The position numbers were made by a program, and so were the translations under genes. A stretch of 64,000 nt of DNA, taken from assembly GCF_001761485.1 (NCBI RefSeq), contig NC_090775.1:1-64000 (forward strand), in the 5' to 3' direction. Positions 4,713 to 45,282 of the stretch are shown here, one piece after another. This DNA is from Yarrowia lipolytica. Taxonomy: Eukaryota; Ascomycota; Dipodascomycetes; Dipodascales. Below the pieces are notes generated by a model. That model ran no database searches. It saw only the letters and a list, made by a program, of their open reading frames with translations, and was not told the DNA's origin. Position 1 is the stretch's first letter. Each line of letters begins with the position of its first letter.

Positions 4713-4935
4713 GGGATGCTTTCAACGACCTTGCTTCAATACAAGATTATAACAGATATCAAGACATTCTCAGGCGTGCTCTAGTGGTTCTCAAGACAGT
4801 CGTAAGAGCGTATTCCATATGGCATGAAGAGCTCAACAGACTCTACTTCGTGGTTTACGGGGGCTTCATCAATGTATAAGTGGGATAATTGGTGTTGAAG
4901 CACAGAGTAGTCAACCCATGTACCTTCTGGATTGC
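4713..4935 (+). repeat. 223-bp direct repeat, copy 1
   Basis: This segment recurs at 6164-6386 with the same length, no indels and about eight mismatches (near 96 percent identity by eye). It starts at GGGATGCTTTCAACG and ends at CTTCTGGATTGC. The flanks differ immediately outside both ends, and no target-site duplication was seen. It carries no convincing ORF and no terminal inverted repeat. It may be a short dispersed repeat or a local segmental duplication. Confidence 0.9.
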
Positions 4936-6163
4936 GACTTCATCTACAAGATCATCGGTAGTTTTTAGAAGTCACGTATAACTTCGATGATTACTACTTA
5001 TTTGCCCTGAATTTGGAACGCGGGTACAGCTTCATCAAAGGAACGCCATGAAACAGATAACGACCTAAGACGAGATTTTCGGGCAAATGACAGCAACCCA
5101 GATTTACCTGCGGAAAAAGAGAGGTTCTGATGGCAAGCCTACGAAGTCCGTTCAGGCTAGAAACTACTCTTCAACAGTCCATGTCCGGAGCCAGGAGAAA
5201 CAGGAGGTCAGTCGATTCGGAAGGACTCGGATTCTACCGTGAAATTTAGAGGGACCGACAAAACCTGTGGGAGTCGGAGCTGACTGCTTGAGACTGCAAC
5301 TGACCGTGATCGCAAGGACACCAAGACTATCACGAAGTGGGCGTCATTCTTCAACGAAATTGTATATCTTTGGTTCTAATCACCATCATTTTCCATCTGT
5401 TTCGTGACGTCAGAATGTTTCATGAAACCTTCTTTCAATAAGTATCTTCCTACCACCCCGGCACCAATATGATTAGCGATATTGTGCCGTCTTGATTGAC
5501 ACGTTGGGAGCGTCCACAGGGGTCTTCTAAGGGGGATATATTAAACGTGAGGCCAAATGGTGGTCCGTGCTCGAAGCCCATAAGAGCACATTCCCATAGC
5601 ACAGGAAGTCTTTCCGTGGGGATCAGTTCTGCTCACCTTGTTCTCTGCCAAAGGGAGTCACGGATATTTGTGTCGAGGCTAAGTTTCCTCAAACGTTACT
5701 AAATACTTGGGCCTCTCCGCTGTGTACCGTGCCAACTGTGTACTGGCTATTAACACCATTCTTCCAACCTCCAACAAGGTGGAAATAATCACGAGATCAA
5801 AGGCGGTTTCAGCAATGGTTCCTCTACAAAAGATATCGCTTCTTACAACTACAAATACTGTTCAACCTCTCTACAACTCAAATATTCGGGGGGACTCTTT
5901 GGTCCATGATTTATTTAACCCAAGAGGTTTCGGATTTTTCACCTACTTCCTCTTAAAAAACTAGAATAAACAGGTTCGGTCAGTTACAAATCCTCTGGCT
6001 AAAGAGGTTTCACTGCCTTACTCCTTGAATGAGTGGTGGAACTTCGGCTCGTTGCTCAGGCTCTCATTGCTCTTTGGGACTTATTGGCAACTGGCTGGCC
6101 TCGGCTCTATGGCCCTTGGCTCCTTCGGGCTCTGTTCTGTGCTCTGGCGGTTTGGCGGCTTAT

Positions 6164-6386
6164 GGGATGCTTTCAACGACCTTGCTTCAATATAAGATTA
6201 TAACGGATATCAAGACATTCTCAGGCGTGCTCTAGTGGTTCTCAAGATGGTCGTAAGAGCGTATTCCATATGGCATGAAGAGTTCAACTGACTCTACTTC
6301 GTGGTTTACGGGGGCTTCATCAATGTATAAGTGGAAGAATTGGTGTTGAAGCACAGAGTAGTCAACCCATGTACCTTCTGGATTGC
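6164..6386 (+). repeat. 223-bp direct repeat, copy 2
   Basis: Second copy of the segment at 4713-4935, in the same orientation. It sits inside the CTCTGGCTC-rich, low-complexity stretch, which continues with the same composition on both sides. This suggests the copy was placed into that sequence rather than that both grew together. No target-site duplication is visible. Confidence 0.9.
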
Positions 6387-8093
6387 AAATTCAGGCATCT
6401 GTGGCCTCTGGCTATCGCTCTGGACTCGTTGTGGTATCTGGCGTATCAGCTCTGGCTCATGTCGCACTGGCTGCTCTGGCCTTATAAAGCTCTGGCTCTG
6501 GGCTTGCTTCTTTTGACCATGTATAGGCGTCTCTGTCAAAGCCAGATCTTTGCTCTACAACTGGCAGCTCCTGCGGCGTATCAAGCTTGGCTCTTCAGAT
6601 TCTATAGGCGGCTTCTCTCATACAGGAATTTCCACCCTATGAAGACTTCACACAAAAGGAGTTTCACCCTGTGAGTAAAACAGGGAATTTCACCTGTTGG
6701 GAAAAGAAGTCTCGAAAGGAGTTTCACCCCCCTTGAGACTCTCTTGTCGGTGGGCTCTGCAGATGTTTCACTATTGTCTGGCTCCTTTGCTCTGGCGGCT
6801 GCCACATGTGGGTCCTCAAGAACTCAAAAAGACACGGAGTAGGCCTCAAGGCATTTCCAGCAGGCCAAACCCCGCTCTTGGCTTAATGGCATTTTTCAGC
6901 TCATGGCGGTCCAACCGGACACGCACAGTCACCGGACTTACTGACCACTTGGCGCAGGCGGTCTCGTACTCGCCCTCTGTGTTGAACTCCGCCTGAGAAA
7001 CCAAATCTCAGCTCAAACCGCCCAATCTCAGAAGCTGTCTCGCACATTCTCAGGGCTCATACATTTCTTTTTCAATGGGCGTCATAGCGAAGAGTCTCTT
7101 GAACCGAAAAGGGCTCATGCGGTAAACGCGTCCTCATTGCCCAAACAAACTCAACGGACCATGGCTAGCGAAGCGGTTCCTCCGTTGTATATGAAGACAG
7201 GGTCTGCTTATCAGCCTCTGCATCTCAAGCAGGCTATAAAAGGGCACCTTCCATCTCCAGAATTGAACTCAGAGTGGAACTGGTCTGATTTCTGATTGAA
7301 AAAAAAGGGGACGTAGAAGGGGGGTTTATATATATCCTTCCCGAGGGCTGTTTAGGTTCGGAGAGAGTTTGGTCAGGGTGGGAAAAAAAATGTGCATCGT
7401 TGATGCATGCATTATGCCGACGAATTTTTAGGGTGCAGGAGGAAGAAGTCGTCAGAATCAGATGGAAAGCTCCAGAATGTGATGGTAGAGATATTTGGAA
7501 ATAAGTGCGGGAGGGATAACATATTTTGGTAGTAAAATTATGATTTCATTCTTCTAAACAGTCCCATGTCATTTTCCCTGCTACTTCGTAGACCCCAAAC
7601 CTGCCATCTCTCCCTACATATCATAAAACCTTTAATTATGCACCAGCCCTCCTACGCAAGAAAAATTGTCAGAGAAGAATAGCGGAGAATATTCTACGAT
7701 ACCGAAGCCACCTGAATCTTGATTTCGGAAGATACATGTTCCGACTGGAAGGATGTGGCAACATCTGTGCAACAAACTGTCTTCTAAGCTCCAGATAGCC
7801 GTCTTTTTCCCTTGGGGTATTCAGAATGCATGCATGATGAGGAGGCTGGAACGGATGACCTATATGTGAACTTGTGCAACAGGATAATGGCAAAACGCCG
7901 ATTGATTCAACTGTGAGATCCCCGTCATCAAACCGTCATGTACCCTTAGCTTCTCCTTGATCTAAAAATAGCCTCGTAGAAAGCCATCACGCCGACACGA
8001 CGACTAATACGGAGAACATGGGTTGGAAACGGAACATGAAGGTGGCAAAAATAAGTACCATCCCATTTGAAAATGAGCAAAAGAGCAAAAAAG

Positions 8094-8213
8094 TAATTGC
8101 AGCACCCAGGATTCTCGTATGGTCTCCCACTACAATACTAACTGGGCTCTCTGGTGCTTGACTATGGCTGATCGGACGGGAAGCCGTATTTTCACCAGGA
8201 TATGGCCGCAACT
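8094..8213 (-). rRNA. 5S ribosomal RNA gene
   Basis: The minus strand matches yeast 5S rRNA along its whole length: GTTGCGGCCATAT at the 5' end, CCCGTCCGATCA in the middle, GTAGTGGGAGACCATAC in the internal control region and GGTGCTGCAAT at the 3' end. It folds as 5S should. The terminal stem pairs GTTGCGGC with GCTGCAAT (two G-U pairs), helix II pairs CTGGTG with CACCAG, and another stem pairs CCCAG with CTGGG. A run of six T follows at once on the transcribed strand (8087-8092), a good RNA polymerase III terminator. Isolated 5S genes outside the rDNA are known for Yarrowia. No tRNA was found just upstream, so this does not look like a tRNA-5S fusion. The exact ends may be off by one or two bases. 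Short ORFs across it are artefacts. Confidence 0.93.
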
Positions 8214-9951: not shown

Positions 9952-11202
9952 ATGATCCGATTATTCGTAAAATGGAGAACCTCCAACAATTCGCAGAAAT
10001 CCAGGATCTTTCTGAAGAAAACCACCAGATCATTTCGGGCCATTGCGATGTCTTCCAATTCATCACAATCTGCCATACGCTCAGATTACACTCAGAATGA
10101 TGTCACATCATCGGAAATGACTGTGATGAGCTACTACCTACTTGGACCGGAAGTAGGGAGCAAGCTCAACGAAGTCATGCCGCATCGTAGTATCGATGAA
10201 TGGAATTTTTGGACTGAATATTTCTCTTCTGGAGGTATTTACAGCAAGCTAATCCAGTATGCAGGAGACCCCCTTTTCTACGAACGACTCGTCAAGCCAA
10301 ATTTGGAACAGCTCTCGCGTGAATATCCTCAATGGTACGGTAGGCCTGTGGGTATGGATCCATTTCCGTCATACGTCGAGTCGTTTCCATTTCCTGAGTG
10401 GCGCCACCCAGACATGATCTACTTCATGTCTCGATTTGCAAGGAAAACGAGGCACTACCTCAGATATGAAAACTTCCTCGAAACCCGCGAAATCGTTCTG
10501 GAGAAGCTGGAAGAACAGTACCCTCATTTCGACATGCATTATGTGGAAAATTGGAGCTGGAAGTTTGAGCAGAATGCCTTCAAGCTGTCTAGGGCTGCGG
10601 CTAAGCTGATGGCAAAAGAAGGCAGCCTGAGGGAGTATAGGAAGTGGCTAGAGAGGACTTTTCCTGAGTATTACGGCGGACCGCAAAGAGTGGCAGAGAT
10701 TAGAAAAGTAGACTGGTATAATGTGGAAAACATTATGAAGTCTACAGGTAGTGGGAAAAGTGTGATTGCTGCTTTGAGCAAACTTCTACCCATTCAGCTG
10801 ATAAAGGACGCTTTCTACAAGACCTCCGGTTTACCAGGGCCCGCTTTGAAATACATGAAGCATCCAGAGGAGCCACTGCCGGGAATTTGGACTGCTTCTG
10901 ATGACTTGGATTTGCTGGAGGACGACGAATATCAAGTGGCTAGATTGAGGACATTCCACGGAGATCACAATGTGAAGTTTAGACAAGAGTTTTTGGTCAA
11001 GAGGGTGGTGAAGGCTAATAATGATGCCAAATCTGCTTTTGAGAGGCCCAAAATGAGTTCGCCTCGAACTCATGTGTCTCCACTTGGTGAACCAGATGTT
11101 GCATGTCCCACTTTAGATCAGATGAGATTGATAGAGTGCTTCGGTGGCTATGGAGGAGAGGAGTTGAGAAGATTGAGGATGAAGGCGTTATCTCAACTGT
11201 GA
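9952..11202 (+). CDS. Unassigned protein, 416 aa, internal helical repeats
   Basis: The family is not recognised with confidence. The first ATG gives 416 aa; a second in-frame ATG at 10048 (MSSNSSQS) gives 384 aa. The first 32 residues are rich in Arg, Lys, Ser and Thr with no acidic residue, like a mitochondrial presequence, so the start matters for localisation. The body repeats a unit ending in a Tyr/Phe-Pro-x-Tyr pattern: EYPQWYGRP near residue 124, QYPHFD near 185, FPEYYGGP near 238. Near residues 305-345 the segment PGIWTASDDLDLLEDD, followed by a His-Gly and an Arg-x-Glu-Phe-Leu, resembles the GxWTxxDDxxL signature I associate with C-terminal regions of fungal Rap1-like proteins; that link is weak and from memory. 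Codon use is that of a normal gene. No intron was needed. Confidence 0.75.
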   Translation: MIRLFVKWRTSNNSQKSRIFLKKTTRSFRAIAMSSNSSQSAIRSDYTQNDVTSSEMTVMSYYLLGPEVGSKLNEVMPHRSIDEWNFWTEYFSSGGIYSKLIQYAGDPLFYERLVKPNLEQLSREYPQWYGRPVGMDPFPSYVESFPFPEWRHPDMIYFMSRFARKTRHYLRYENFLETREIVLEKLEEQYPHFDMHYVENWSWKFEQNAFKLSRAAAKLMAKEGSLREYRKWLERTFPEYYGGPQRVAEIRKVDWYNVENIMKSTGSGKSVIAALSKLLPIQLIKDAFYKTSGLPGPALKYMKHPEEPLPGIWTASDDLDLLEDDEYQVARLRTFHGDHNVKFRQEFLVKRVVKANNDAKSAFERPKMSSPRTHVSPLGEPDVACPTLDQMRLIECFGGYGGEELRRLRMKALSQL

Positions 11203-22908: not shown

Positions 22909-25511
22909 ATGTCGTTGACGACCAGAGATGATGTACGAAATCGGCTGCGGCCTTTTGGAGTCATGTGAGTATGCAGAATGCAGCAGTCGTGTGATTGAAG
23001 AGGTCATGGGGTTCCCTCTTCACCATAACACCAGTGAGCCATTAACCAACCACAACACCACAGCCACACTAACACAGATTCGAATCAACATTAACTGATC
23101 TCATTAAGGGTATTCGAGCCGCCAAAGATCTGCCCGCCAAAGAGCGGTTCCTCAAACAGGCAGTGTCCGACTGCCACCAGGAGGCCCGAAACCAGGATCT
23201 GACCGTCAAGACACTCGCCATCCTCAAACTGGCATATCTGGAGATGCTGGGTTACGACATGTCGTGGGCCTCCTTCCACGTCCTGGAGGTCATGAGCTCG
23301 CCAAAGTTCCAACAAAAACGAGTGGGCTACCTCGCTGCCATCCAGTCCTACCGTGACGACGACGATGTGTTGATGCTTGCGACCAACCTCCTTAAACGTG
23401 ATCTGACGTCAAGCTCGCCGGTCGAGGTGTCCGTGTCTCTATCCGCAATCGCCACCATTGTCACCCCTTCACTCGCTCAGGACGTGCACCCCGAAATTGT
23501 CAAAATGCTGTCCCATTCGAAACCCTACATCCGAAAGAAGGCAGTGCTGGCAATGTATAAGATCTTCCTCCAGTACCCAGAGGCACTGCGGACGTCGTTC
23601 TCTCGTCTCAGAGATCGACTCGATGATTCAGACCCCTCAGTTGTTTCTGCCACAGTCAACGTGATCTGTGAGCTCGCCAAGAAGCACTCAAAGAACTACG
23701 TGCCCCTGGCCCCACAACTCTACCAGCTGCTGACCACGTCCTCCAATAACTGGATGATGATTAAGATCCTCAAGCTGTTCTCGTCGTTGGCACCCATTGA
23801 GCCTCGGCTTAAACCTAAGCTGTTGCCTCAGATCATGACCCTGATCCAGTCCACCTCGGCACTCTCCCTCCAGTACGAGTGCATCAACTGCATTGTGAGC
23901 GGAGGCATGCTAGGAGAAGACGACCACGATGTGGCTGGTGTCTGTGTCGAGAAGCTGTCGTCTTTTGTGAACCAAGGCGACCAGAATCTCAAGTACGTGG
24001 GTCTTTTAGCGCTTGGGAAGATCGTCAAGGTCCATCCCATTCTTGTTGGAAAGCTGCAGGGTGTCATTCTGGAATGCCTCAAGGAAAACGCCGATTCCAC
24101 GATCCGAGAACGAGCACTGGAGCTTGCCAACGATCTTGCATCGGAACACAATGTTGAAACCATTGTGAACCTGCTGCTTTCCCAGCAACTTACCCACGCG
24201 TCCATTTCATACATTCTGGACATGTGCTGCAGAGACACATACTCACTCATTTCCGACTTTGAGTGGTTCTTGAATGTGCTCAAGAAGCTCGCACTGGTCG
24301 ATTTCCCTCTCGAAGACCCTGCTCGGATCGGAGAAACGCTCCGAGATCTGTGCATGCGAGTCCCCGATATGCGAGAGGAGATTACCGGAGTTTGCTACGA
24401 AATATTCACAGACGGAGGTGTGTATCTCCGGAACCCCGGCGTCCTGCCTCCCGTTCTCTTCTGTCTCAGCGAGTACCCCATGCATCGACAAAAGGACATT
24501 TTGGACTTTTGCCTCAACTCATACTCGCACGTCAGAGAGAACAGTGGCAGCAGCAACAATGCTGTCGATCTGGCCGTTTGTGTATGCATCGTGAAGGTGT
24601 TTGGCAAGTTCTGCGAGGGCATCATCTGGTCATCTCCCAACGAGCTTTATGTTAAAAAGACTGTGACCAATGTGATCAAGTTTTTGTCGTCATATCTTGC
24701 GTCGCCGGACTACGAGCTGCAGGACTTTGCCACCCAGTTTTCCGAGCTCTTCAAGGTCATTTCCGAGTCTCTGGAGGAGGAGGGTGTGCCTGTGCTTCTT
24801 ACCGAGGTGCTGCCGTCTTTCTTTGCATATGAACTGAATCCTGTGGCACCAGACACTCAGAAGAGAATTCCATTCTTAGATCTGGAGCTCCCTCCCGAGC
24901 TTGAGCAGACCCTGGAAGTGGAATTCTCTGACATTGAGGACGAGGAGGTTTATGTTGAGGAGGAGTTTACCCCCCAATTTGCTTCTACGGTCAGTGGAGT
25001 GCAGAAGGAGAGTCTACTGGATGCTCGTAAGGAGCGACTAGAGAAGCAGAAGGATGATCCGTTCTACATTTCTCGAGACACTACGCCCAATCCTCTCAAG
25101 GACGAGCAGGTGGACGTCGATTCCATCCCCGTGGTGGACCTGCAGATCAACGAGACATCGATAAAGACTCCGCCCATTCAGACCAAGCCGAAGCGCAAGA
25201 TTAAGATCATCAAGGACGAGCAGATTGATGGCGAGATTGTGCCCAAGTTGGAGGTGACCAAGAACGTCAAGAAGAACGTTTTGATTCGGCCCAACCAGCT
25301 CGACCAGTTTGAGCTGGAGGACGACAAGGACTCGCCCGAGGTTGCGCAGATGAAGCAGGAGCTCAAGGACAAGAAAGATAAGAAGGACAAGAAGGACAAG
25401 AGGGACAAAAAGGACAAGGAAAAGAAGCCCAAGAGCAAGGCCAAGAAGGAGGGGGCTGATGGCGAGGTCAAGGAGAAGAAGCGCAAGAAGCGGGTTGCCG
25501 TCATCGAGTAG
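22909..25511 (+). CDS. AP-3 adaptor complex delta subunit
   Basis: Large subunit of the AP-3 coat, which carries cargo from Golgi or endosomes directly to the vacuole. Two exons: 22909-22964 (18 codons plus 2 nt, MSLTTRDDVRNRLRPFGV), intron 22965-23077 (113 nt, GTGAGT donor, CTAACACAG acceptor), and 23078-25511. The spliced protein is 829 aa. Residues from about 19 (FESTLTDLIKGIR) match the N-terminal signature of AP-3 delta. The adaptin-type alpha-solenoid follows (YLEMLGYDMSWASFHVLEVM, PYIRKKAVLAMYKIF) and runs to about residue 600. The tail is acidic, then extremely Lys-rich (repeated KDKKDKKDK), as in other delta subunits. Partners would be beta3, mu3 and sigma3, encoded elsewhere. Confidence 0.95.
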
Positions 25512-30731: not shown

Positions 30732-33700
30732 ATGTCTGCTCAGGCATTGAAGGAGTTGCTAAAGCGATGCAAAGAGGCAATCTCTAGCGGGCGGTTCCCC
30801 GACGCTATTGAGGCTGCCAACGATGCTCTCGAGGTCGATGAGGAAAACTACCAGGCGTGAGTACAACCTGTGACACGGATCATTGGTGATGTGACATGGT
30901 GAATGGTATAACCAAACTAACACAGAACACTGCTGCTAGGAAAGGCTCAATATCTCAACAAGGACAACACCGCCGCTTGCGCCGCCTACGACAAGGCTAT
31001 CAAGCTGGAGCCCACCCAGCCCCTGGCGTACATTGGCCTGTTGCAGGCATGCAACGTTCGATCCAATGGCAAAAAGTACCTGGCCACCCTGATCGAGGTA
31101 CTCAAGATTCTGTGCGGACAGGACCACCAGACCAAGGCCAACGACACCTACTGCAAAAGTGAACGGGCGATCTACTCACACGCCACCCCCGAGACACAGC
31201 TGGAGTTCACCAAACTGCAGATCCCCGGCTCGCCGCTCTTTTCGCTCATGGAGTCTGTCATGCCTAAACCGGCCTTTACCTACGAGAAGCTCGTTAAAAT
31301 GGAGGAGGAGCAGGAAAAGAAGGCGCTCAACAAGGCACTGGCTGATGCTAACTTCACCATCACAGGCAAGAAGAAACGAACGCCCCAGCAAGTGCGGTAC
31401 GACTTCCACAGCAAATCCAACCTGCCATTCTTGTACCAGGAGCTCATCAACTGGACCAACAATGACGAGCTGCGAATCGAGACAGAGAAGAAACTGCTCA
31501 AGTGCCGAGCAGATCTCTTGGCCAGTGCGCCTCCGGGCAAGGAGAAGGAACAGCTACATATGGAGGTCTCGGATATGGTCGATGGTGCCGTGGTCATCAA
31601 GGCACGCGACTCACTGGCCTGGGACCTGTATCTCGAGTGGCTTGATCCCCGGGATCTTGGCGACCTCCCCAGCGAGACAGTCAATGAGTACCTGGACTTT
31701 TTCTCTGAGACTGGTCTCCACAAGATTCTCAGTGGATACATTTATTCCGACATCTCCAGCATGGTAAGAACCAAGAAGGAGGACAAAAAGGACAATGAAG
31801 AAGGCGAGGATGGAGCGAAGGATGGAGAGGCTGCCGAAGATGGTGATATTGAGAAGACTGCAAAGGTCGACAAAAAGGAACCTAAGAAAGAGCCCAAGGA
31901 GCCCAAAAAGGAGCCTAAGGATTCCAAGGAAAAGGACGCTGCCGAAGGCGATGATGACCTCACTGGACTGGAGGAGAAGGACGGCGGCAATGACGAGGTT
32001 CTGTCGGAGGACATCACAACATACCTTTCCGAGGGTCTCAAGCAGGACCCCAAGTCGATCCTGGGTCACCGAATATCTGCTCAGTATTACTTCCACCACA
32101 AGGAGTATGCTGAGGCGATTCGAATGTGTCTTTCCGGTATTGAGACTGCCAACAAGTACCACGACACCTGGCTAAGTCATGTGAAGAACGCTCTCAGACA
32201 TTTCAGCATCATTCTAGGAACCTGTTACATCTTCTACCAGGCCCCTAAGAACTTTGACAACGCTCTGGAGATCTTCAACGCAGTTCTCGAGGAGGAGCCC
32301 AAGAACGTGGCTGGTCTCGTTGGTAAGGGCCTGATTCTGGTAGAGAAAAAGCAGTGGTCAGAGGCCCGAACCCTGCTCCAGGAGGTTGTGGACAAGAACC
32401 CCGACAACAGCCAGGCTCTTTTCGAGCTGTCGTGGTGCTGTGTCTTGATGGGTGACTATGAACAGGGCCGAAAGGGTCTTGAGCATGTAATTGGCCTTGT
32501 CACCGGTTCCGACTCTGTTTCCCGGGACCTCCGAGCTCAATGCTATTGGCGAATTGGCCAGTCTTACGAGAAGGAGGGTCATGATGATACACAAGTCATT
32601 TTCCAGGCATACCTCAAATCGCTCACGGAGAACCCCAACTTTGCTCCCTCATACACTGCTCTTGGTTTGCTGTACGCTGACTCTGTTGGCGATCAGGCCC
32701 GAGCCTCTAAGTGTTTCTACAAGGCTCTGGAGCTCAGTGCACAGGAAATCAAGGCTGCCGAGAGACTGGCCATTGAGTTTTCTGACAAGGGAGACTGGGA
32801 TGCTGTTGAGGTGATTGCGAACCGAGTCATTGGTGTGATGAAGGACAAGGTTGCGTGGCCCTACAGAGCCCTCGGTATATCATATCTCAACAAGAACGAC
32901 TTTGGCAAGGCCATCGTCAACTTCCAGTGGGTTCTTCGAGTCGATTCCACTGACGTGAATGCTTGGACTGGCCTCGGAGAGGCATATAAGAAGGCAGGAC
33001 GTCTGACGAGTGCTCTGAAGGCCCTTGAGCGTGCCAACCAACTCATTTCCAAGCAGGAGGGCGATGATTCTACTGATAACCAGCTCGACAAGTGGATTCC
33101 TGGCTATCTTGCTGCTGTTTCTCATTCCGAGCTTGCAGAGTACTCCGCTGCTCTGGAGATTCTTGAGAACATTCTCCAGCACCATCCCCACGAGAACATT
33201 GTTCTGCGAGCTCTGCAAACCACACTCAACAGCGCTGCTACTGCATCTATCACCGATGGACTCTACGTTGAGGGCGCCAATTACGCCATCAAGTCTCTGG
33301 AGTCGTGTGTCGTGAGTGTTGGCCTTGGCCACCAATCTCAAGATTTGTGGAAGTCTATTGGTGACGCTTGTGCGGTCTTCCTACGAGTGGAGAGTCAGAT
33401 CCAGCGGTTCCCCATCGAGCTGGCGAAGAAGATCTTTTCCGGCATGTCTGCAGACAAGGTACGGGAGTTCAACAACTTTGCCGAGCGAAACTTTTCGTTC
33501 GACTCCAACCACGCTCTTCTCGTTCAGATTGGAGAGCATGACGGCCAGCCTCTGGACGGCGCTGATTTGGAGTACCCTACTCCCGTGACTCAGGAGTCCA
33601 TCAACGTGCTCTACCTGACTGCCTTCAAATACTCTCTTCTGTGTGCTCGTCCCGACCCCTCCACCCAGGCTGCAGGATGGTATAATCTCGGTTTGGCCGA

Positions 33701-35288: not shown

Positions 35289-36632
35289 CTAGTTTCCTCT
35301 GAGGTCGTTCTCGCCACATTCGAAATTGCATCCTAGGCCACTTCGGTACTCTCTGATTCCTTGGCTCCAAAGGGTCAACTTCTCCATATGACTGTGGAGC
35401 ACCTTCTTATCGTTCCACACGTCATTGATGTAGCTCTTATTGAGACGCCGGACATCTTTTCCTGTGAAGTCATGTAACACTTTGATCAGTTGAACAAAAG
35501 TGGTTCTGTTAGTAACTAGTACGTTGACATATTGTTCATTGTCGCAATTGTTACCAGTTTGCACAACACAACTGATTACGTATGTTTGCCTTCCATTGTT
35601 GGAAGGACACTTAATGTCAGGCTCAGGGATAACATGGCTGCCCACATCGAAAACCTCCTTTCCTTTGTATGTGTCCTTTCGGCATCCGCTCACATCGTCC
35701 TCTTCCTCGATCTCTTCCACGGCGTCTTCCTCGATCTCTTCCTCGACATCCTCTTCCTCGATCTCTTCCTCGGCCTCTTCCTCTCCGACGTCACTAGGTA
35801 CCTCGTTTCCAGAAGCAACCAAAAATTCCTCAGGAACTCTCTGGTTGTCATTATCGGTCAAGTCTCCATCAGGGCCAACCACCCCGTCAGTGCTTTCCTC
35901 TGCACCAGAGTCACCCTCTTTAGCAGAGTTTTCCTCATCGCCAGAGCTTTCGGCCACATCGGAGACTGTCTCTTGCTCATTATCCGGGGAGGAAACTTCA
36001 GCAGCAGTGCGAACAGCAGTCTCTGCCGCGGCGACAAGAGCATCAAACTCATCAGATACATCAGTGGCATCATAATATTCCTCCTCGGAATTATTGGCGG
36101 AAGGATCCTCGTCAGCGACAGGCCTGTCGATGCTAGGCTCTCCCGGGCCATCATCGTCGCTCTTGTCGGAAGGAGAAGGCTCGTCTCTTTTTTGACGCTT
36201 TCTACCTGTGCTGATTGAGTCCGGTAGCTTGCGCTTGTTGGAATGTTCAACGGCGGGGGAAGGCTCTCGTGAAGAAGGGGCGGAAAGAGAGGCTGCTCGC
36301 GCCGCTTCAATGGTACGACTAACACTGGCTGCGATAGCAGAAATTGCTGCATCGGGGAGCGGTCGGTTATCAGAAGCGGTGCTTCGGGCTCGGGAAGAAG
36401 ACGCAACAGGGGGGTCTTCAAGAGACGTGTGTGGTACTTCTGGCGGCGCTGTGGCTTGAGGTCGGAGTGCACGGACTCCAGGACGGGAACGTCGACGAGG
36501 GTTGCGTCGGGTAAGGGGGCGGATCTCCGTTTGAAGTTCTTCTGCTTCTTGTCGATTTTCGGGAGCGGGTGAGATACGGCTGGCGTTATTGATGGTGGCC
36601 CACATAAGCATTGGGGGTGGCTTGCGAGTCAT
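35289..36632 (-). CDS. Acidic protein with C-terminal ubiquitin/SUMO-like domain (paralogue A)
   Basis: 447 aa, ATG at 36632. The N-terminal 340 residues look disordered: Arg-rich near 40-60 (TRRNPRRRSRP), nuclear-localisation-like near 135-155 (SNKRKLPDS, GRKRQKRDEP), then acidic, with an almost pure Glu tract before the C-terminal domain. Residues 351-432 are folded-looking: a strand, an insert, VNVLVTNRTTFVQLIKVL (strand, then helix) and two further strands. They align with the C-terminus of the neighbouring gene at 38166-39950 (Y-x-I-S, V-L-V/I, T-T-F/Y, L-I, G-I-x-x-Y-R). The order of elements and the TT before the helix match the beta-grasp of SUMO. Disordered acidic proteins ending in SUMO-like domains are known (Rad60, Esc2, NIP45); that parallel is inference. 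Its promoter is homologous to that of the neighbour. Confidence 0.8.
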   Translation of the reverse strand: MTRKPPPMLMWATINNASRISPAPENRQEAEELQTEIRPLTRRNPRRRSRPGVRALRPQATAPPEVPHTSLEDPPVASSSRARSTASDNRPLPDAAISAIAASVSRTIEAARAASLSAPSSREPSPAVEHSNKRKLPDSISTGRKRQKRDEPSPSDKSDDDGPGEPSIDRPVADEDPSANNSEEEYYDATDVSDEFDALVAAAETAVRTAAEVSSPDNEQETVSDVAESSGDEENSAKEGDSGAEESTDGVVGPDGDLTDNDNQRVPEEFLVASGNEVPSDVGEEEAEEEIEEEDVEEEIEEDAVEEIEEEDDVSGCRKDTYKGKEVFDVGSHVIPEPDIKCPSNNGRQTYVISCVVQTGNNCDNEQYVNVLVTNRTTFVQLIKVLHDFTGKDVRRLNKSYINDVWNDKKVLHSHMEKLTLWSQGIREYRSGLGCNFECGENDLRGN

Positions 36633-38165: not shown

Positions 38166-39950
38166 TTAACCGCCATTCGTCTGAGAATGAAGCCAAACGT
38201 TGGTACAAGAGTTGGTGCCAACAGGGGCTCGGTAAGCGTGAATCCCCGAAGAATGCAAGGTCGCGTTTCTCTGATAGGCACCGGCTCTTTCGTGTGTGTC
38301 CTCTAGATCATTGTAGAAAAAAATGTGCATACTTCTCAGTTCTACACCAGGAAACCTCTCACCCAACCTCTCGATCAATTTCATGTAAGTGGTTCCCTTT
38401 GAGATCAGGACATCCAAGAACTCTTGCCCTTCCACGTGCAAACTGATAGGGTAGTAAGAATCACTTCTGTCTAAGGGATGAACACAAGAAAAGGCAATAT
38501 CTAGTTCACCGTGATCCTCCTCTTCCTCCCTTCCGTTCTCTTCGTCTTCGTTCTCTTTCTCTTTCTCCTTTTCTCCCTCCTCCTCCTCCTCCTCTTCGTC
38601 AGTGTCTTGGTGGAGAGCTCGGGCTCCCTCCCTAGAATAAACAATGTCTGAATCATCATCGGACAGCGGAGTGTGACGTTCAATGGATTCTGTAGTATTC
38701 ATCTCCTCATCACTGATTTGCCCCTCTTCCTCATCAGGAGGTTGGGAAGAAACTTCAAGCAGCGAATCAACAGTGGACTGAGTAGAAATATTTGCAGCCG
38801 TTCCGGTGGTAGTTCCTCCTAGACTTCGAGAAGCATGGTCCTCGTCCAGGACAGAACCGAGAGAGTCGGGAGCCTGGTTGTCCACTCTCTCCTCTTCGGG
38901 GTCTTTGCCAGAGGCACAAACTTTTGGACGCTTAGGAGATGGCTCAGGGGCGTCATCATCGGATTGATGTCGTTTGCTGGCGGTTGGGGCTTCAGACACT
39001 GGAAGGGTGTGTGGACTCTCGCTGAGAGACTGCTCGGGCGCAGGAGAAGCGGAAGTGAGACGGCGAGCATCTGCTGTCAACATATCCATCCGCTTCTGCT
39101 TCACTTCATCAGCGTGCCCAGAGGCAAGTAGTCGAGGAAAAGACGAAGAAAGCACAATCTGTCTTGGGGTGGCACGCTTTTTCACAGGAGTAGCTGGGTC
39201 CTTGGAGGAAGAAGCGACAGGATCAGGTTCTTGAGAAGCCGACTTGGGTGAAGCAATGGCACCTTTGTTTTTAACAGATATCTCGTCCATCCGCTTCTGT
39301 AGACTTTCATCGACGAACCCAGTGGGAAGAGATGAAGGGAGGGCAATCATTCTTGGGGTGGCACGCTTTTTCATAGGAGGAGCTGGGATCTTGGAGGGAG
39401 AAGCGACAGGCACACGTTCTTGAGAAAACAACTCAGTCGAAGCAGAGACACCTTTGTTTTTAACAGATATCTCGTCCATCCGCTTCTGTAGACTTTCATC
39501 GACGAACCCAGTGGGAAGAGATGAAGGGAGGGCAATCTTTCTTGGGGTGGCACGCTTTTTGATAGGAGGAGCTGGGATCTTGGAGGGAGAAGCGACAGGC
39601 ACACGTTCTTGAGAAAACAACTCAGTCGAAGCAGAGACACCTTTGTTTTTAACAGATATCTCGTCCATCCGCTTCTGTAGACTTTCATCGACGAACCCAG
39701 TGGGAAGAGATGAAGGGAGGGCAATCTTTCTTGGGGAGGCACGCTTTTTCACAGGAGTAGCTGGGTCCTTGGAGGAAGAAGCGACAGGATCAGGTTCTTG
39801 AGAAGCCGACTTGGGTGAAGCCGACTTTGTCTTAGACGAGGGTTGGGTAACGTATGGTCCAGACCTGTGTCTGGAACTGAAAGTCTTGCCGGATCTTAGA
39901 GCACCGGTGACTTTTCTCATCATTGCAGACTGTTTCCTTCGCGGGGGCAT
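38166..39950 (-). CDS. Repeat-containing acidic protein with C-terminal SUMO-like domain (paralogue B)
   Basis: 594 aa, ATG at 39950. After a basic start (MPPRRKQ) come about 3.5 near-identical 63-residue repeats (residues about 40-260). Each has a basic KKRATPR motif, then LPSSLPTGFVDESLQKRMDE and VKNKG. A nuclear-localisation-like PKRPKV follows, then an acidic region and a Glu/Lys tract. The C-terminal domain (about 500-578) runs ISLHVEGQEFLDVLISKGTT, then a helix (YMKLIERL), then SMHIFFYND and IHAYRAPVG. Element for element this parallels yeast Smt3 (INLKV, FFKIKKTT, RRLMEAF, LRFLYDG, IEAHREQIGG). The protein ends NGG, a C-terminal di-glycine. It is a paralogue of 35289-36632. Role unknown; a nuclear SUMO-like adaptor is a reasonable inference, not a demonstration. 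Confidence 0.82.
   Translation of the reverse strand: MPPRRKQSAMMRKVTGALRSGKTFSSRHRSGPYVTQPSSKTKSASPKSASQEPDPVASSSKDPATPVKKRASPRKIALPSSLPTGFVDESLQKRMDEISVKNKGVSASTELFSQERVPVASPSKIPAPPIKKRATPRKIALPSSLPTGFVDESLQKRMDEISVKNKGVSASTELFSQERVPVASPSKIPAPPMKKRATPRMIALPSSLPTGFVDESLQKRMDEISVKNKGAIASPKSASQEPDPVASSSKDPATPVKKRATPRQIVLSSSFPRLLASGHADEVKQKRMDMLTADARRLTSASPAPEQSLSESPHTLPVSEAPTASKRHQSDDDAPEPSPKRPKVCASGKDPEEERVDNQAPDSLGSVLDEDHASRSLGGTTTGTAANISTQSTVDSLLEVSSQPPDEEEGQISDEEMNTTESIERHTPLSDDDSDIVYSREGARALHQDTDEEEEEEEGEKEKEKENEDEENGREEEEDHGELDIAFSCVHPLDRSDSYYPISLHVEGQEFLDVLISKGTTYMKLIERLGERFPGVELRSMHIFFYNDLEDTHERAGAYQRNATLHSSGIHAYRAPVGTNSCTNVWLHSQTNGG
39171..39835 (-). repeat. 189-bp coding minisatellite, about 3.5 units
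   Basis: The same sequence recurs with a period of exactly 189 bp: the word CCTTTGTTTTTAACAG starts at 39262, 39451 and 39640, and GGCACGC starts at 39171 and 39738 (three periods apart). Units two and three are almost identical, while the outer half-units share a different variant (EPDPVASSSKD). It encodes 63-residue protein repeats, stays in frame, and contains no stop. Confidence 0.95.
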
Positions 39951-41129: not shown

Positions 41130-42965
41130 TCACCAACTGAACCCATCAAACCAACTCTTGAAAGAAGCTGACATTGCCGCCCACCTTCCTTCCGGATCTA
41201 GGGTGGTCTTGGAGGGAGATGGGGGAGACTCATCCGTATCAGAGTCGTCCACAAATCGGACTCTTTTTATTCCTCGTCTTTTAGTCTTCTTTTGTATAGG
41301 TGCTGGAGACTTCCCTTGACCAGGGTCATTCTTGTACCTCACTCGGCCCGACTCTGAGCCTTTGATCGTATCTTCAGTCTTACCAGAATCACCCCCAATC
41401 TTCACTCTCTTGACACAAGTGCCGGGAGTCTCGGTTGAAACACGCTTGGTACCTCGAGGAGGAGCCGGCTCAACATTTTCGGGCAGAGACTTTCCATCTT
41501 GGAGCACTTTCGCATAGCGATTGACAACTTTCATATGCTTCTGTGCTAGGTAGTCGATAATGCGTTGACTGATGGCATCCAATTTCAGATCACCACTGTA
41601 ATCAGGGAGCTGATGTGATGCCAGACTGAAGGTCAGCGACTCTTCAACCAGCTGAGAGATGACAGCCAGATCCACGGCACCCATGTCAACAAGTGGAGGA
41701 TGTGCCTGGACATAAGAATCGGATCGAGGGTCAGGAAAGGACAGGCTTGAAAGATGGTCGTGGAGGTTGTCAGGTGGGATCTTGACTGTTTGTCCGGGGA
41801 ATTTCATTCGGAACAATGTAACGTTGCTGGATGAGCACGTTGTGAATGTCGTATCCAAAGGAGGATGTTGGACACAGAACCGAGCGGTATGTCTGGCTGG
41901 AAGCATCATATTATGAGGCAAGAAGGACTTGATAGTCTCGCTATGGTGAGCGTCTTTGGGAAGATCCACTTTCAAAAGAGGAGTTTGGTATGGTCGTCGT
42001 TTCTGTGCCACATGTCGTCTGGTCCGGTATTCTGAAAACAAATGACAAGAAATGTTGCGGAAGGCTTCCGCGATTTTGACAGGCACTTCATCCTCTTTTT
42101 CTGTCTTGTAAATGGAAACAATCGGATCAAAAGGATGAAGATTGGCAATTGCCATCTGGAGCTCTGTGGCAAGCCACTTGGTTTCTCCCCAACAGGGGTT
42201 CATGAACAGAAAGGCTTTGGGTTGACCATAAGTCTTCATGAAAGCCTTAAGAGCTCTCTGTAGCTTGTCTCTAACGTCGTTTGGGCGCATGGGTTGGAAG
42301 GCAGAAAGAGAAACGGTAGCTTGAGTGGTGTGGTCGATAAAGTAGATGAGGTAAGAGTTTCCCTGTTCTTCTCTGTAGAGACCAAAGAAGACCAATCCAG
42401 CTTTGTTGGCACTCGGATTTAGCGACTTGTGGGACACGTGGTGCTTGTGGATCTTCTTCCAAAGACTCATCATTTCGTCGTAGTGGAGCTGTTTTCTCGG
42501 TTTGCAGAGCTCGGCCCATTTTGTTTCCGAGCCATCCATGCTGCGAATACACCAAGGGAGAATCTGTTTAACCATTTCGACGGTGATGTCGGGTACTTTG
42601 AGACGAATCAGGTGCTCCGAAATGATACTGACAGAAGTGGTATAGTCCAGCAGAACGTGGACGGCAAACACGATCCACGGAACATGTTCCTTGGCAATCT
42701 TAAGGGTTCTTTCATTTGTAGACACGTTTCGTTGAACAATGAGATGTCCATCTTTCAGTTGATCGTTGTACTGCTTGCTTGTGACTAGAGGATAAGACGT
42801 CGAGATGGAATGGTACCAGATTGAAAAGCGACTCAAGTAGGAAACTTGTCCATAGGGAGTAGGCAAATCGAGACATTTCTCAGCTCTCTGAGATATGATG
42901 GTGGCGATTGATGGCGTGGAAGTTATCGTAATTGGAGGCATGGAGTTGGTGGCAGTAGGGGGCAT
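41130..42965 (-). CDS. Integrase-core-like protein, whole ORF, LTR-element affinity
   Basis: 611 aa from the ATG at 42965 (MPPTATNS). An ATG at 43058 in the same frame lies inside the promoter module and is not preferred. Residues about 215-310 resemble the RNase-H-fold core of LTR-retrotransposon integrases, copia/Ty1 type: SYLIYFIDHTTQA, then LQRALKAFMKTYGQP, then MNPCWGETKWLATELQMA. A helical segment before it and a region after it (AEAFRNISCH) fit the same order. The last 120 residues are basic and probably disordered, with nuclear-localisation-like KKTKRRGIKRVRF. No gag, protease, reverse transcriptase or LTR was seen around it. It therefore looks like a stand-alone, possibly host-adopted, integrase relative. 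Whether it has any enzymatic activity cannot be judged from here. The domain call is from pattern resemblance only. Confidence 0.6.
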   Translation of the reverse strand: MPPTATNSMPPITITSTPSIATIISQRAEKCLDLPTPYGQVSYLSRFSIWYHSISTSYPLVTSKQYNDQLKDGHLIVQRNVSTNERTLKIAKEHVPWIVFAVHVLLDYTTSVSIISEHLIRLKVPDITVEMVKQILPWCIRSMDGSETKWAELCKPRKQLHYDEMMSLWKKIHKHHVSHKSLNPSANKAGLVFFGLYREEQGNSYLIYFIDHTTQATVSLSAFQPMRPNDVRDKLQRALKAFMKTYGQPKAFLFMNPCWGETKWLATELQMAIANLHPFDPIVSIYKTEKEDEVPVKIAEAFRNISCHLFSEYRTRRHVAQKRRPYQTPLLKVDLPKDAHHSETIKSFLPHNMMLPARHTARFCVQHPPLDTTFTTCSSSNVTLFRMKFPGQTVKIPPDNLHDHLSSLSFPDPRSDSYVQAHPPLVDMGAVDLAVISQLVEESLTFSLASHQLPDYSGDLKLDAISQRIIDYLAQKHMKVVNRYAKVLQDGKSLPENVEPAPPRGTKRVSTETPGTCVKRVKIGGDSGKTEDTIKGSESGRVRYKNDPGQGKSPAPIQKKTKRRGIKRVRFVDDSDTDESPPSPSKTTLDPEGRWAAMSASFKSWFDGFSW

Positions 42966-43034
42966 GATTATTATGGTGATTTGATGCTGTGGATCATATG
43001 GCGACTGTTGTACAACATTATACTGTACATTGGT

Positions 43035-43179
43035 CCTATAATGACCTAATGAGGCCATGTTTCATGCTACTTCTTGTTTGTGTGGCAGACGCCCGTAGAT
43101 CGAGAGTTGGTTTGATCATACAAAGAAAACATACTCTTGTTCATCACATTTGCGGTTGTGAGGCGTTGGTGTGGCAGAA
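43035..43179. promoter_or_regulatory. Shared module in the divergent promoter of the integrase-like gene and the H4 variant
   Basis: Contains CCTATAATG (43035-43043), a CATTATAGG box for the minus-strand gene about 70 bp from its ATG at 42965. It also contains TTCATG and CTTGTTTG words and two copies of GTGTGGCAGA (43080-43089 and 43170-43179). The first copy is in the same position and order relative to TATA as in the two SUMO-like genes. The module lies between divergent genes and could act on both. Confidence 0.6.
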
Positions 43180-43573
43180 GTCTAGGGGCACCTGGGTGCA
43201 GCGTTGTTTCATATCCTAGAGATGTCCTCTAGGTCCATTGACGTCACTATCGCAGACGGGTTTTTTTGAGTCACTCGTGGCACGTCCACCCAATATGGCA
43301 TTACTCACTGTTTAATGGACCTATCGGGGCACGATCATGTCTGTGATATCCATCTCGTTAGTCTCAGGGGTGCGTGGATTATGCAGCCCCGCATTATCTC
43401 CTGCAGTCTCGGCTATTGTTTCCCGTTTGGTGACACCAGTCGGCCTCACGAGTTTTGAGTTTGGGGCTGAAACAGACAATCAATGTTGAGATGTACCCGT
43501 ACGAGTACTCGAATGGGGTCTTTCAATGTAGTGCAAAGGGTCTCTAAGACTATCCTCAAGCCAGCCGGGGAAG

Positions 43574-43581
43574 TATAAATA
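43574..43581 (+). promoter_or_regulatory. TATA box of the H4 variant gene
   Basis: TATAAATA at 43574-43581, 96 bp upstream of the ATG at 43670. It is followed by a pyrimidine-rich stretch and a leader of ACAACTACAACTAC and (CTA)n trinucleotides ending in ACAATGG. The layout is that of a strong, regulated yeast promoter. Confidence 0.6.
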
Positions 43582-43669
43582 CCACCTTCTTCCCTGTCCA
43601 ATTTCCTCATTAGTCTTCTGGTTCTACACCACAACTACAACTACAACTACTACTACTACTACTACTACA

Positions 43670-43924
43670 ATGGCTGGCGGAAGAGGTCTCAGAAAGGGCA
43701 TCAACAAGCCCACAATCCGTCGTCTTGCCCGACGAGGAGGCGTCAAGAGAATCTCCTCAAACATCGATCCGGACAGCCGAGACATTGTGAAGGATGTCAT
43801 CAAGCAAGTGCTTGGAGACGCCCTTTTCTACACTCATCACGCCCGTCGAAATACCGTCACTGGTGTTGATGTGGTGCATGCCCTCAAGCGACAGGGCAGA
43901 CCCCTCTATGGCTTTGATGCTTAG
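43670..43924 (+). CDS. Divergent histone H4 variant with shortened N-terminal tail
   Basis: 84 aa, against about 103 for canonical H4. The histone fold is clear: [17 protein letters not shown] (helix 1 entry), a diverged helix 1 to helix 2, then [21 protein letters not shown] and LYGF. Conserved H4 positions are kept around the DNA-contacting RRGGVKRIS and the C-terminal helix 3. The stretch between them ([26 protein letters not shown]) differs strongly from the canonical segment, which is among the most conserved in eukaryotes. The N-tail is reduced to AGGRGLRK before GINKP, so the region holding Lys5, 8, 12, 16 and 20 is essentially gone. No upstream exon was found, and the ATG has a good context (ACAATGG). 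It is transcribed divergently from the integrase-like gene. A bona fide variant rather than a pseudogene is favoured, since the frame is clean. Confidence 0.92.
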
Positions 43925-45282
43925 TCAAAGACCACTTTTGGCAACTCTTTACTGAATTAACATGCGAAATTGTAATGAGAGTAGTAGGCCTTGGGCGAGA
44001 CGTCGTATTTCACATTGTATCGTAGCACCTCGAATTCGCCGACTGGAGAATCAAATACCAACTTTCGAGGTGATATATTAATACAATGAGATAGAGGAGG
44101 AGTTTTTGATCATTTTGGTACCACAAAGTGGTTCATTATTGCTTCGGATTATTGAATGATGACTGTCTGTTTTTCTCTATGGGTTCATGTTGGCGGAGTA
44201 TAGTGGAGCACACACAATCAACAATAACAACAACAACAACACACACAGTGGATTGAAAGTGGACGTAATAAACAAGTACAACTACTTGTGGACGGCGTCA
44301 GGTACTTTCTTGAGAACATTTCTCTCATTCAGAGGACTTTGTACTAGCTATAGTCCACTTTGTATGCTCTGGAGAACAATGAAGATTCGAACAATAATAT
44401 CTAATATTGGAAGAAAGAGGAGCTCTTCACGAGCGATTGGAAATCTGAAGACCAGTCGGGCAGAAAAATCGTGAAATCGGTGATCTAGGAATGAACATTG
44501 TCCGGAGTTCATATATTGCTCATTAGGGACACATTTCAGACTATTTTATATGATAATAATTGTTTATTTGTCCCCCCTTGTTCAATTGATAAAGCTTTGG
44601 TTTTGATCAACCAGATATTCGTCATTCTAGAGTCATCCCAGAGTTCTTTTTTTTTTTAATAACATAATACATTTTTTTTTTTTTCTGCATATACATTCAT
44701 TTAATTATAACTTTGCTGTGAAAGAATAACCTTTGAAATGAATGTACGCTTACACGAATATTACTAATTAATGTCTTCTAACTGCACCCATGTCTTCTAA
44801 CTGCACCCAGTATCCATTGAACATTATAAGTATTAATGCTGATTAGATAAGTTAACGGAACGACTTACAGGGACACCACGTTCCCATTGTGGCACACACC
44901 CTTCTGGTGGGCTTGCTCATTCTCTTCTGGTGTGTGCTTGTTCATTCACCAGGAAAAGATTCTAGATCAGTGAAACTCTTAACAGGATGGATATCTCGTC
45001 TACGACCAAGCTGGTTCCTCTCATCATAATTGCCAGGAATCGCCAGGTATCCTACTACTGACAGACACCTTCCTCACCCCAATATAGTCCCTAAAAATTT
45101 CTGTGGCCGAGTCCACCTCGCGATTGTAGAGGTCCAGAACGTCATTATCGCGACTGCCAGAAAACTCAAAAGCACCTTACGGTATGTACTGTACTGTACT
45201 GCACTGTACCGATCTCACACACCTCCTACACAACATGATCGACTATATACATCATATCATTAACTGCTTTCATCACAACCAC
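43925..45282. other. Intergenic, AT-rich, no gene seen
   Basis: Convergent space between the H4 variant and LAP2. Contains T-runs at 44648-44660 and 44671-44685, a twofold tandem ATGTCTTCTAACTGCACCC at 44770-44808, and a GTAC array at 45181-45212. A 95-aa frame at 44187 is Asn-repeat-led and domain-free; not called. Confidence 0.5.

What the first reader, a model, noticed from the sequence alone, without database searches (positions are those of the whole stretch)
43670..43924. Histone H4 variant with a nearly absent N-terminal tail
H4 is one of the least variable eukaryotic proteins, and sequence-divergent H4 variants are rare in fungi. This 84-aa protein keeps [22 protein letters not shown] and LYGF. 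It has lost the tail region that carries Lys5 to Lys20, and it is rewritten between helix 1 and helix 2, where H3 and H2B contacts lie. A nucleosome containing it could not receive the usual H4 acetylation or H4K20 methylation, and might be used at special loci or life stages.
Basis: partly seen in the sequence, partly recalled or inferred. Interest (0 to 1): 0.82.

Follow-up and report, generated by a model that had tools for sequence, protein, structure and literature searches.

The report
Short-tailed divergent histone H4 gene
A yeast genome carries an intact, divergent histone H4 gene whose protein keeps the first and last parts of the histone core but has lost most of the regulatory tail and has a rewritten central helix; whether it is used in chromatin is not yet known.

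Summary
Window 43670-43924 (+) is an intact single-exon ORF of 84 aa; residues 9-84 align ungapped to H4 27-102 with 46 of 76 identities. No hidden upstream exon was found: TATAAATA 96 nt upstream, in-frame stop at 43529, no tail-like peptide in the upstream frames, and none of the window's verified Yarrowia-type intron signals there.

Two corrections. The tail looks shrunken by an internal deletion (about H4 13-27): GRGLRK resembles GKGLGK, so a Lys12-like lysine may remain (weak, P 0.03). The rewritten part is H4 48-71, mainly the first two-thirds of helix 2 (18 of 24 changed; scan P 0.00075), not the loop between helices.

Patchy constraint argues against neutral decay, but hydrophobic retention is not significant (P 0.52), and no orthologue, transcript or other H4 of this genome could be examined. 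It fails two defining features of the known fungal variant H4E. Best reading: a minor, lineage-specific H4 variant, probably able to pair with H3 and form nucleosomes lacking most H4-tail contacts.

The parts
43670..43924 (+). Coding sequence of the short-tailed H4 variant, 84 aa plus stop, single exon
43670..43696 (+). Residual N-terminal tail MAGGRGLRK, resembling H4 4-12 (GKGGKGLGK); H4 13-27 missing in that alignment
   Evidence: shuffle P 0.031: suggestive only
43715..43756 (+). Block identical to canonical H4 34-47 (most of helix 1, and loop 1), 14 residues
43757..43828 (+). Divergent block, H4 48-71 (last residue of loop 1 and most of helix 2), 18 of 24 residues changed against human H4
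43829..43921 (+). End of helix 2, loop 2, helix 3 and C-terminus; keeps TVT, DVV, ALKRQGR, LYGF; changes E74H, K77R, K79N, A83G, M84V, Y88H, T96P, G101D, G102A
43574..43581 (+). TATA box (TATAAATA), 96 nt before the ATG
43582..43669 (+). Presumed transcription start region and 5' UTR with CAACTA/CTA repeat; A at -3 of the ATG
   Evidence: sequence; inference
43059..43669 (.). 611-bp intergenic region between the variant (+) and the divergently oriented ORF of 642 aa (-); no H4-tail peptide in the forward frames and no standard Yarrowia-type intron signals

Best explanation
This is a protein-coding, lineage-specific paralogue of histone H4 in a Yarrowia-type yeast. Shown: the ORF is intact, has codon usage like the window's other genes and its own TATA box, and encodes the H4 histone fold without indels but with the tail shortened so that the protein is about 19 residues shorter than H4. 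Inferred: it pairs with H3 (or an H3 variant) and is handed to chromatin by the usual H3-H4 chaperones, because the helix-1 surface and the C-terminal strand that such chaperones hold are largely kept. A nucleosome with it would lack most of the H4 tail: no 16-20 basic patch to reach the acidic patch of a neighbouring nucleosome, and no Lys5/8/16 acetylation or Lys20 methylation. It would therefore form looser chromatin, largely blind to the enzymes and remodellers that read that tail. The altered helix 2 (and Y88H) would change pairing strength or partner choice. It is most likely a minor or conditional histone, not the main H4.
For: H4 identity: ungapped alignment over 76 residues, 46 identical. 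AlphaFold2 with a two-sequence alignment (mean pLDDT 71.8; five models 52.7-71.8) predicts helices at 13-21, 34-57 and 65-74, where H4 has helices 1, 2 and 3. Uneven constraint: 18 of 30 changes fall in one 24-residue block (scan P 0.00075; 0.0003 against neutral mutation of an H4 gene with this window's codon usage); 14 identical residues in a row (P 0.013); changes milder than neutral (BLOSUM P 0.005, or 0.014 among stop-free trials). Kept, by my recollection of the structures: 12 of 14 DNA-proximal, 8 of 8 helix-1 chaperone-facing, 6 of 7 C-terminal Asf1/H2A-docking positions. Codon adaptation 0.71; other forward frames 0.50 and 0.44; reverse frames 0.50-0.61; 3.2% of 3000 random windows score as high; the scale is set by ten genes of this window, which themselves score 0.52-0.84. 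Yeast H4 without its N-terminus supports growth: Kayne 1988, of which I saw only the title in reference lists.
Against: No transcript, protein or orthologue was seen. Retention of hydrophobic character is no better than neutral (26 of 32 positions, P 0.52; large ones 22 of 26, P 0.22), and a neutral H4 core this diverged stays free of stops in 26% or 21% of trials. The clustering argument compares with human/L001 H4, not with the canonical H4 of this genome, which may itself differ. Codon bias is moderate, not what I would expect of a main histone gene. The best-studied fungal H4 variant, H4E, has no detectable phenotype when deleted in A. nidulans (PMC10878826, abstract and discussion read). 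The AlphaFold model matches solved H4 only loosely (rmsd about 10-13 A, TM about 0.5).
Confidence: 0.55

Rival explanations
1. A duplicate H4 gene in decay: it lost part of its tail by deletion, is under weak or no selection, and is still open only because it is short.
For: An H4 core of this divergence would have no stop by chance in 21-26% of neutral trials; hydrophobic retention is not above neutral; moderate codon bias; no orthologue was seen (none could be looked for in yeasts).
Against: The changes are strongly clustered and mild; TATA box, start context and codon usage look intact; no indel against H4 in 76 codons.
Confidence: 0.27
2. A histone-fold protein that has left the nucleosome: helix 2 was rebuilt to pair with another histone-fold partner (a TAF-, CENP- or NF-Y-like protein) or to act on chaperones alone.
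For: The divergent block is the H3-pairing helix; loss of tail; K79N and Y88H touch DNA and H2B surfaces (recalled); Pfam TAF scores 21.5 against a cut-off of 21, while Pfam Histone (18.2, cut-off 26.4) is not reached.
Against: Canonical H4 gives the same Pfam labels, more strongly (CENP-T_C 33.1, TAF 24.8), and also misses the Histone cut-off (23.0), so these are no sign of another family; the segment 28-60 alone still finds H4 first in PDB, though weakly (best E 0.047; 60 of 88 hits shown, all H4); recalled DNA-proximal residues are kept 12 of 14.
Confidence: 0.13
3. A misread gene: a missed upstream exon restores a normal tail, or the gene is the genome's ordinary H4.
For: One H4 gene of Y. 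lipolytica, named H4_3, has an intron (PMC3029354, text read in two of three parts); some Trichomonascaceae are said to have divergent H4 (PMC10878826).
Against: On the + strand no GTGAGT/GTAAGT/GTATGT and no CTAAC or CTGAC at 42901-43930, no H4-tail peptide in three frames of 43059-43720, TATA box 96 nt from the ATG; only weak donors such as GTGCGT at 43370 and two poor branch/acceptor-like strings. The name H4_3 implies at least three H4 genes in Y. lipolytica, so an ordinary one elsewhere is likely, but this genome could not be searched.
Confidence: 0.05

Closest known systems
   Same: Ungapped histone fold, 46/76 (human and L001) and 45/76 (S. cerevisiae) identities; 14-residue block H4 34-47 identical; same C-terminal LYGF
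   Different: 84 instead of 102-103 aa; tail 13-27 missing; 18 of 24 residues changed at 48-71; K77R, K79N, Y88H, T96P
H4E / hH4v of Pezizomycotina, early Taphrinomycotina and Glomeromycota (PMC10878826)
   Same: A divergent H4 in a fungus, fewer tail lysines
   Different: H4E is described as having longer N- and C-terminal tails, a fairly conserved fold, a visible basic patch and a typical model of seven introns (one in Glomeromycota), and as not found in Saccharomycotina; here the tail is shorter, helix 2 diverges, the patch is gone and there is no intron
Divergent H4 proteins of some Trichomonascaceae (one sentence and unseen figure S4 in PMC10878826)
   Same: Possibly related yeasts with H4 proteins that depart from the canonical sequence
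   Different: Sequences not seen; could include relatives of this gene
Engineered S. cerevisiae H4 lacking its N-terminus (Kayne 1988; title only seen, details recalled)
   Same: Natural counterpart of a tail-deleted H4 that still allows growth
   Different: Here the core is changed as well and this is presumably an additional gene
Human H4G (as described in the discussion of PMC10878826)
   Same: Shortened divergent H4 variant
   Different: H4G lacks the C-terminal tail region; here the N-terminal tail is shortened

Membership tests
Histone H4 family | H4-type histone fold with H4 sequence signature, no indels in the fold | tested here: met
   76 ungapped positions, 46 identical; 93 distinct PDB sequences matched, the 60 shown all H4
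Histone H4 family | Conserved N-terminal tail with Lys5/8/12/16 and 16-20 basic patch | tested here: not met
   H4 13-27 absent; at best GRGLRK resembles GKGLGK. So it is an H4-derived variant, not a canonical H4
Histone H4 family | Forms H3-H4 dimers and nucleosomes | not testable with these tools
   No complex prediction or experiment available
Fungal H4E variant | N- and C-terminal tails longer than in canonical H4 | tested here: not met
   84 aa, shorter N-terminus, C-terminus of canonical length; definition read
Fungal H4E variant | Characteristic intron-containing gene structure | tested here: not met
   Single uninterrupted ORF; no standard intron signals found at 42901-43930
Fungal H4E variant | Common descent with H4E in a tree | not tested
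CENP-T / TAF histone-fold families | Scores above those of ordinary H4 against the family profile | tested here: not met
   Variant 23.6 and 21.5 bits; canonical H4 33.1 and 24.8 bits, L001 H4 33.0 and 24.7

The most novel reading that the evidence does not exclude
A dedicated, naturally near-tailless H4 whose remodelled helix 2 pairs it preferentially with a special H3 (for example the centromeric H3 or a meiotic/mating-stage H3), so that one yeast lineage marks particular nucleosomes by H4 rather than by H3 or H2A, in a form invisible to most H4-tail acetylation and silencing enzymes.
Probability: 0.1. Interest if true: 0.85.

Novelty: new variant of a known kind. Interest (0 to 1): 0.55.

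Why it matters
[quoted passage not shown] A natural H4 that keeps most DNA-proximal and chaperone-facing parts but lacks most of the tail would be a ready-made test, in a genetically tractable type of yeast, of what the H4 tail does and of whether H4 can carry nucleosome identity. If it proves to be a decaying copy, it is only a curiosity.

Tried and rejected
Upstream exon with a normal tail: rejected. Other H4 genes in the window: none. CENP-T/TAF identity: rejected by the canonical H4 control. NCBIfam: only an archaeal-histone model below its cut-off (29.6 of 50 bits; L001 H4 39.4) and two chance-level matches. H4E membership: two defining features not met. Relatives in public DNA: viral contigs with the protein gave 39 pattern matches and no relative, with alignment A1 67 and none; genome contigs gave 202 pattern matches and 2 relatives, L001 (full canonical H4) and L002 (43 residues matched, not studied further), which I take for eukaryotic contamination of bacterial bins. 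Own genome: not held. Retention of hydrophobic positions as proof of selection: tried and failed (P 0.52), so I do not use it. Single-sequence AlphaFold: poor (pLDDT 51.7); with L001 added 71.8; the 50 Foldseek rows shown, of 1054 matches, are chains of nucleosome or H3-H4 chaperone entries, but with rmsd about 10-13 A, so I put little weight on it. Literature: all ten searches used; one search listed 20 of 69 papers; no listing showed this variant, but the supplementary H4 alignments of PMC10878826 and PMC3029354 could not be opened, so it may be in them, and the genome's public annotation may list it simply as histone H4. PMC13309789 (Yarrowia introns) does not contain the word histone. PMC9144253 and PMC6703697 were seen in passages only and do not describe such a variant there.

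Full report
What is there. The window is nuclear DNA of a yeast: it holds proteins with MutS domains (read as MSH2), an adaptin, a TPR protein (read as SKI3), a cation-efflux transporter, an aquaporin-family protein, a mitochondrial carrier and an LTA4 hydrolase homologue (the names MSH2 and SKI3 are my reading). Three of its genes contain introns of the form GTGAGT...CTAACACAG that give continuous reading frames when removed (adaptin 22965-23077, TPR protein 30857-30925, transporter 20822-20767). A GTGAGT donor and a CTAAC branch point on average one base from the acceptor are reported as features of Yarrowia lipolytica, unusual among hemiascomycetes (PMC2911113, passages read). CGA is the preferred arginine codon in ten genes of the window (0.44), which I recall as a Yarrowia habit. 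I therefore take the source to be Yarrowia lipolytica or a close relative; the species is not established.

The gene. ORF 43670-43924 (+) encodes 84 aa. Human H4 against the window finds this place alone (E 2e-26, next 4.1). Residues 9-84 correspond without a gap to H4 27-102: 46 of 76 identical to human and to the L001 H4, 45 of 76 to S. cerevisiae. Against the PDB sequences 93 distinct chains match at E 0.001 or better; the 60 shown are H4, the best at 2.7e-25.

No hidden exon found. The in-frame stop upstream is at 43529, TATAAATA is at 43574, and the ATG at 43670 has A at -3. Between 42901 and 43930 on the + strand there is no GTGAGT, GTAAGT, GTATGT, CTAAC or CTGAC. Within 43059-43760 weaker donors exist (for example GTGCGT at 43370), but the only two branch/acceptor-like strings under relaxed patterns do not make a standard Yarrowia intron. 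The three forward frames of 43059-43720 contain no H4-tail-like peptide (read by eye). This matters because one Y. lipolytica H4 gene, called H4_3, does have an intron (PMC3029354, text read in two of three parts).

The tail. The best ungapped match of the N-terminus to the H4 tail, which is this one, has shuffle P 0.031, so this is suggestive only. If right, the tail shrank by an internal deletion of about 15 residues plus loss of the first few, and Lys9 stands where Lys12 was, with Arg5 at Lys8. In either alignment Lys16, Lys20 and the basic patch are gone. The net charge falls from +18 to +11.

The core. Changes are uneven. H4 34-47 (most of helix 1, and loop 1) is identical; H4 48-71 has 18 of 24 residues changed; the rest is mostly kept. 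The clustering is beyond chance (scan P 0.00075; 0.0003 in neutral simulations), the changes are milder than neutral (P 0.005; 0.014 among stop-free trials), and a run of 14 identical residues has P 0.013. Against this, hydrophobic positions are kept no better than in neutral simulations (26 of 32, P 0.52; large ones 22 of 26, P 0.22), and a neutral core would remain free of stops in 26% or 21% of trials. From recalled nucleosome and chaperone structures, 12 of 14 DNA-proximal positions (not K77R, K79N), 10 of 13 H2B/H2A-facing (not T71F, M84V, Y88H), 8 of 8 helix-1 chaperone-facing and 6 of 7 C-terminal docking positions (not T96P) are kept. The role of the H4 C-terminus for Asf1 and H2A is described in PMC3439350 (start of abstract in the listing; passages).

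Expression. Codon adaptation is 0.71 in frame, against 0.50 and 0.44 in the other forward frames and 0.50-0.61 in the reverse ones; 3.2% of 3000 random 255-base windows score as high; the 14 other ORFs examined range from 0.52 to 0.84, ten of them being the reference set itself. That fits a real gene, but not the strong bias I would expect of a main histone gene. It is not direct evidence of expression.

Fold. AlphaFold2 with one sequence is poor (51.7); with the L001 H4 added it reaches 71.8 (other models 52.7-67.6) and gives helices at 13-21, 34-57 and 65-74, as in a histone, besides short ones at 4-8 and 24-30. The 50 Foldseek rows shown, of 1054 matches, are chains of nucleosome or H3-H4 chaperone entries, but with TM about 0.5 and rmsd about 10-13 A, so the model says little about details.

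What it most likely does. I favour a minor H4 variant that still pairs with H3 and is deposited by the usual chaperones, giving nucleosomes without most H4-tail functions (probability 0.55). A decaying copy is the main rival (0.27), a non-nucleosomal histone-fold protein the next (0.13), a misread gene the last (0.05).

What is known. Flipphi et al. 2024 (PMC10878826; abstract, passages, section 2.1 part 1 of 2, section 2.2 and discussion read) describe H4E: longer tails, a typical model of seven introns, no sequences found in Saccharomycotina, no phenotype on deletion in A. nidulans. The present gene fails the tail-length and intron features. They mention in one sentence that H4 of some species of 'Trichomonasceae' (Saccharomycetales) diverges from the canonical form; that figure could not be seen, so relatives of this gene may be there. 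My searches of open papers for H4 variants in Yarrowia or other fungi and for tail-less H4 variants listed no description of it (one search listed 20 of 69).

Verdict. A real and unusual gene; its status as a functional histone is somewhat more likely than not, and unproven. The comparison with sister species, which I could not make, would settle most of it.

Noticed in passing
9952-11202 (+): 416-aa ORF with a Rap1 C-terminal domain (Pfam PF11626, E 1.1e-9): a candidate telomere-related Rap1 homologue in the same window.
   Followed up: no
35289-36632 (-) and 38166-39950 (-): Two neighbouring acidic, low-complexity proteins without Pfam matches at E 0.1 share a C-terminal stretch of about 75 aa (27.6% identity, E 2e-10); the second has repeats spaced 189 bp apart inside its gene (39136-39821).
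   Followed up: partly
41130-43058 (-): 642-aa ORF divergent from the H4 variant, no Pfam family above cut-off (only DUF6919 at E 0.02), low codon adaptation (0.57).
   Followed up: no
8094-8213 (-): A lone 5S rRNA gene (Rfam, 94.9 bits, the only gathering-level match) with no tRNA found by ARAGORN in the window (bacterial settings); dispersed 5S genes are, as I recall, typical of Yarrowia.
   Followed up: no
4713-4942 and 6164-6393: A 230-bp direct repeat, 95.7% identical, 1.45 kb apart; could be ends of a mobile element.
   Followed up: no
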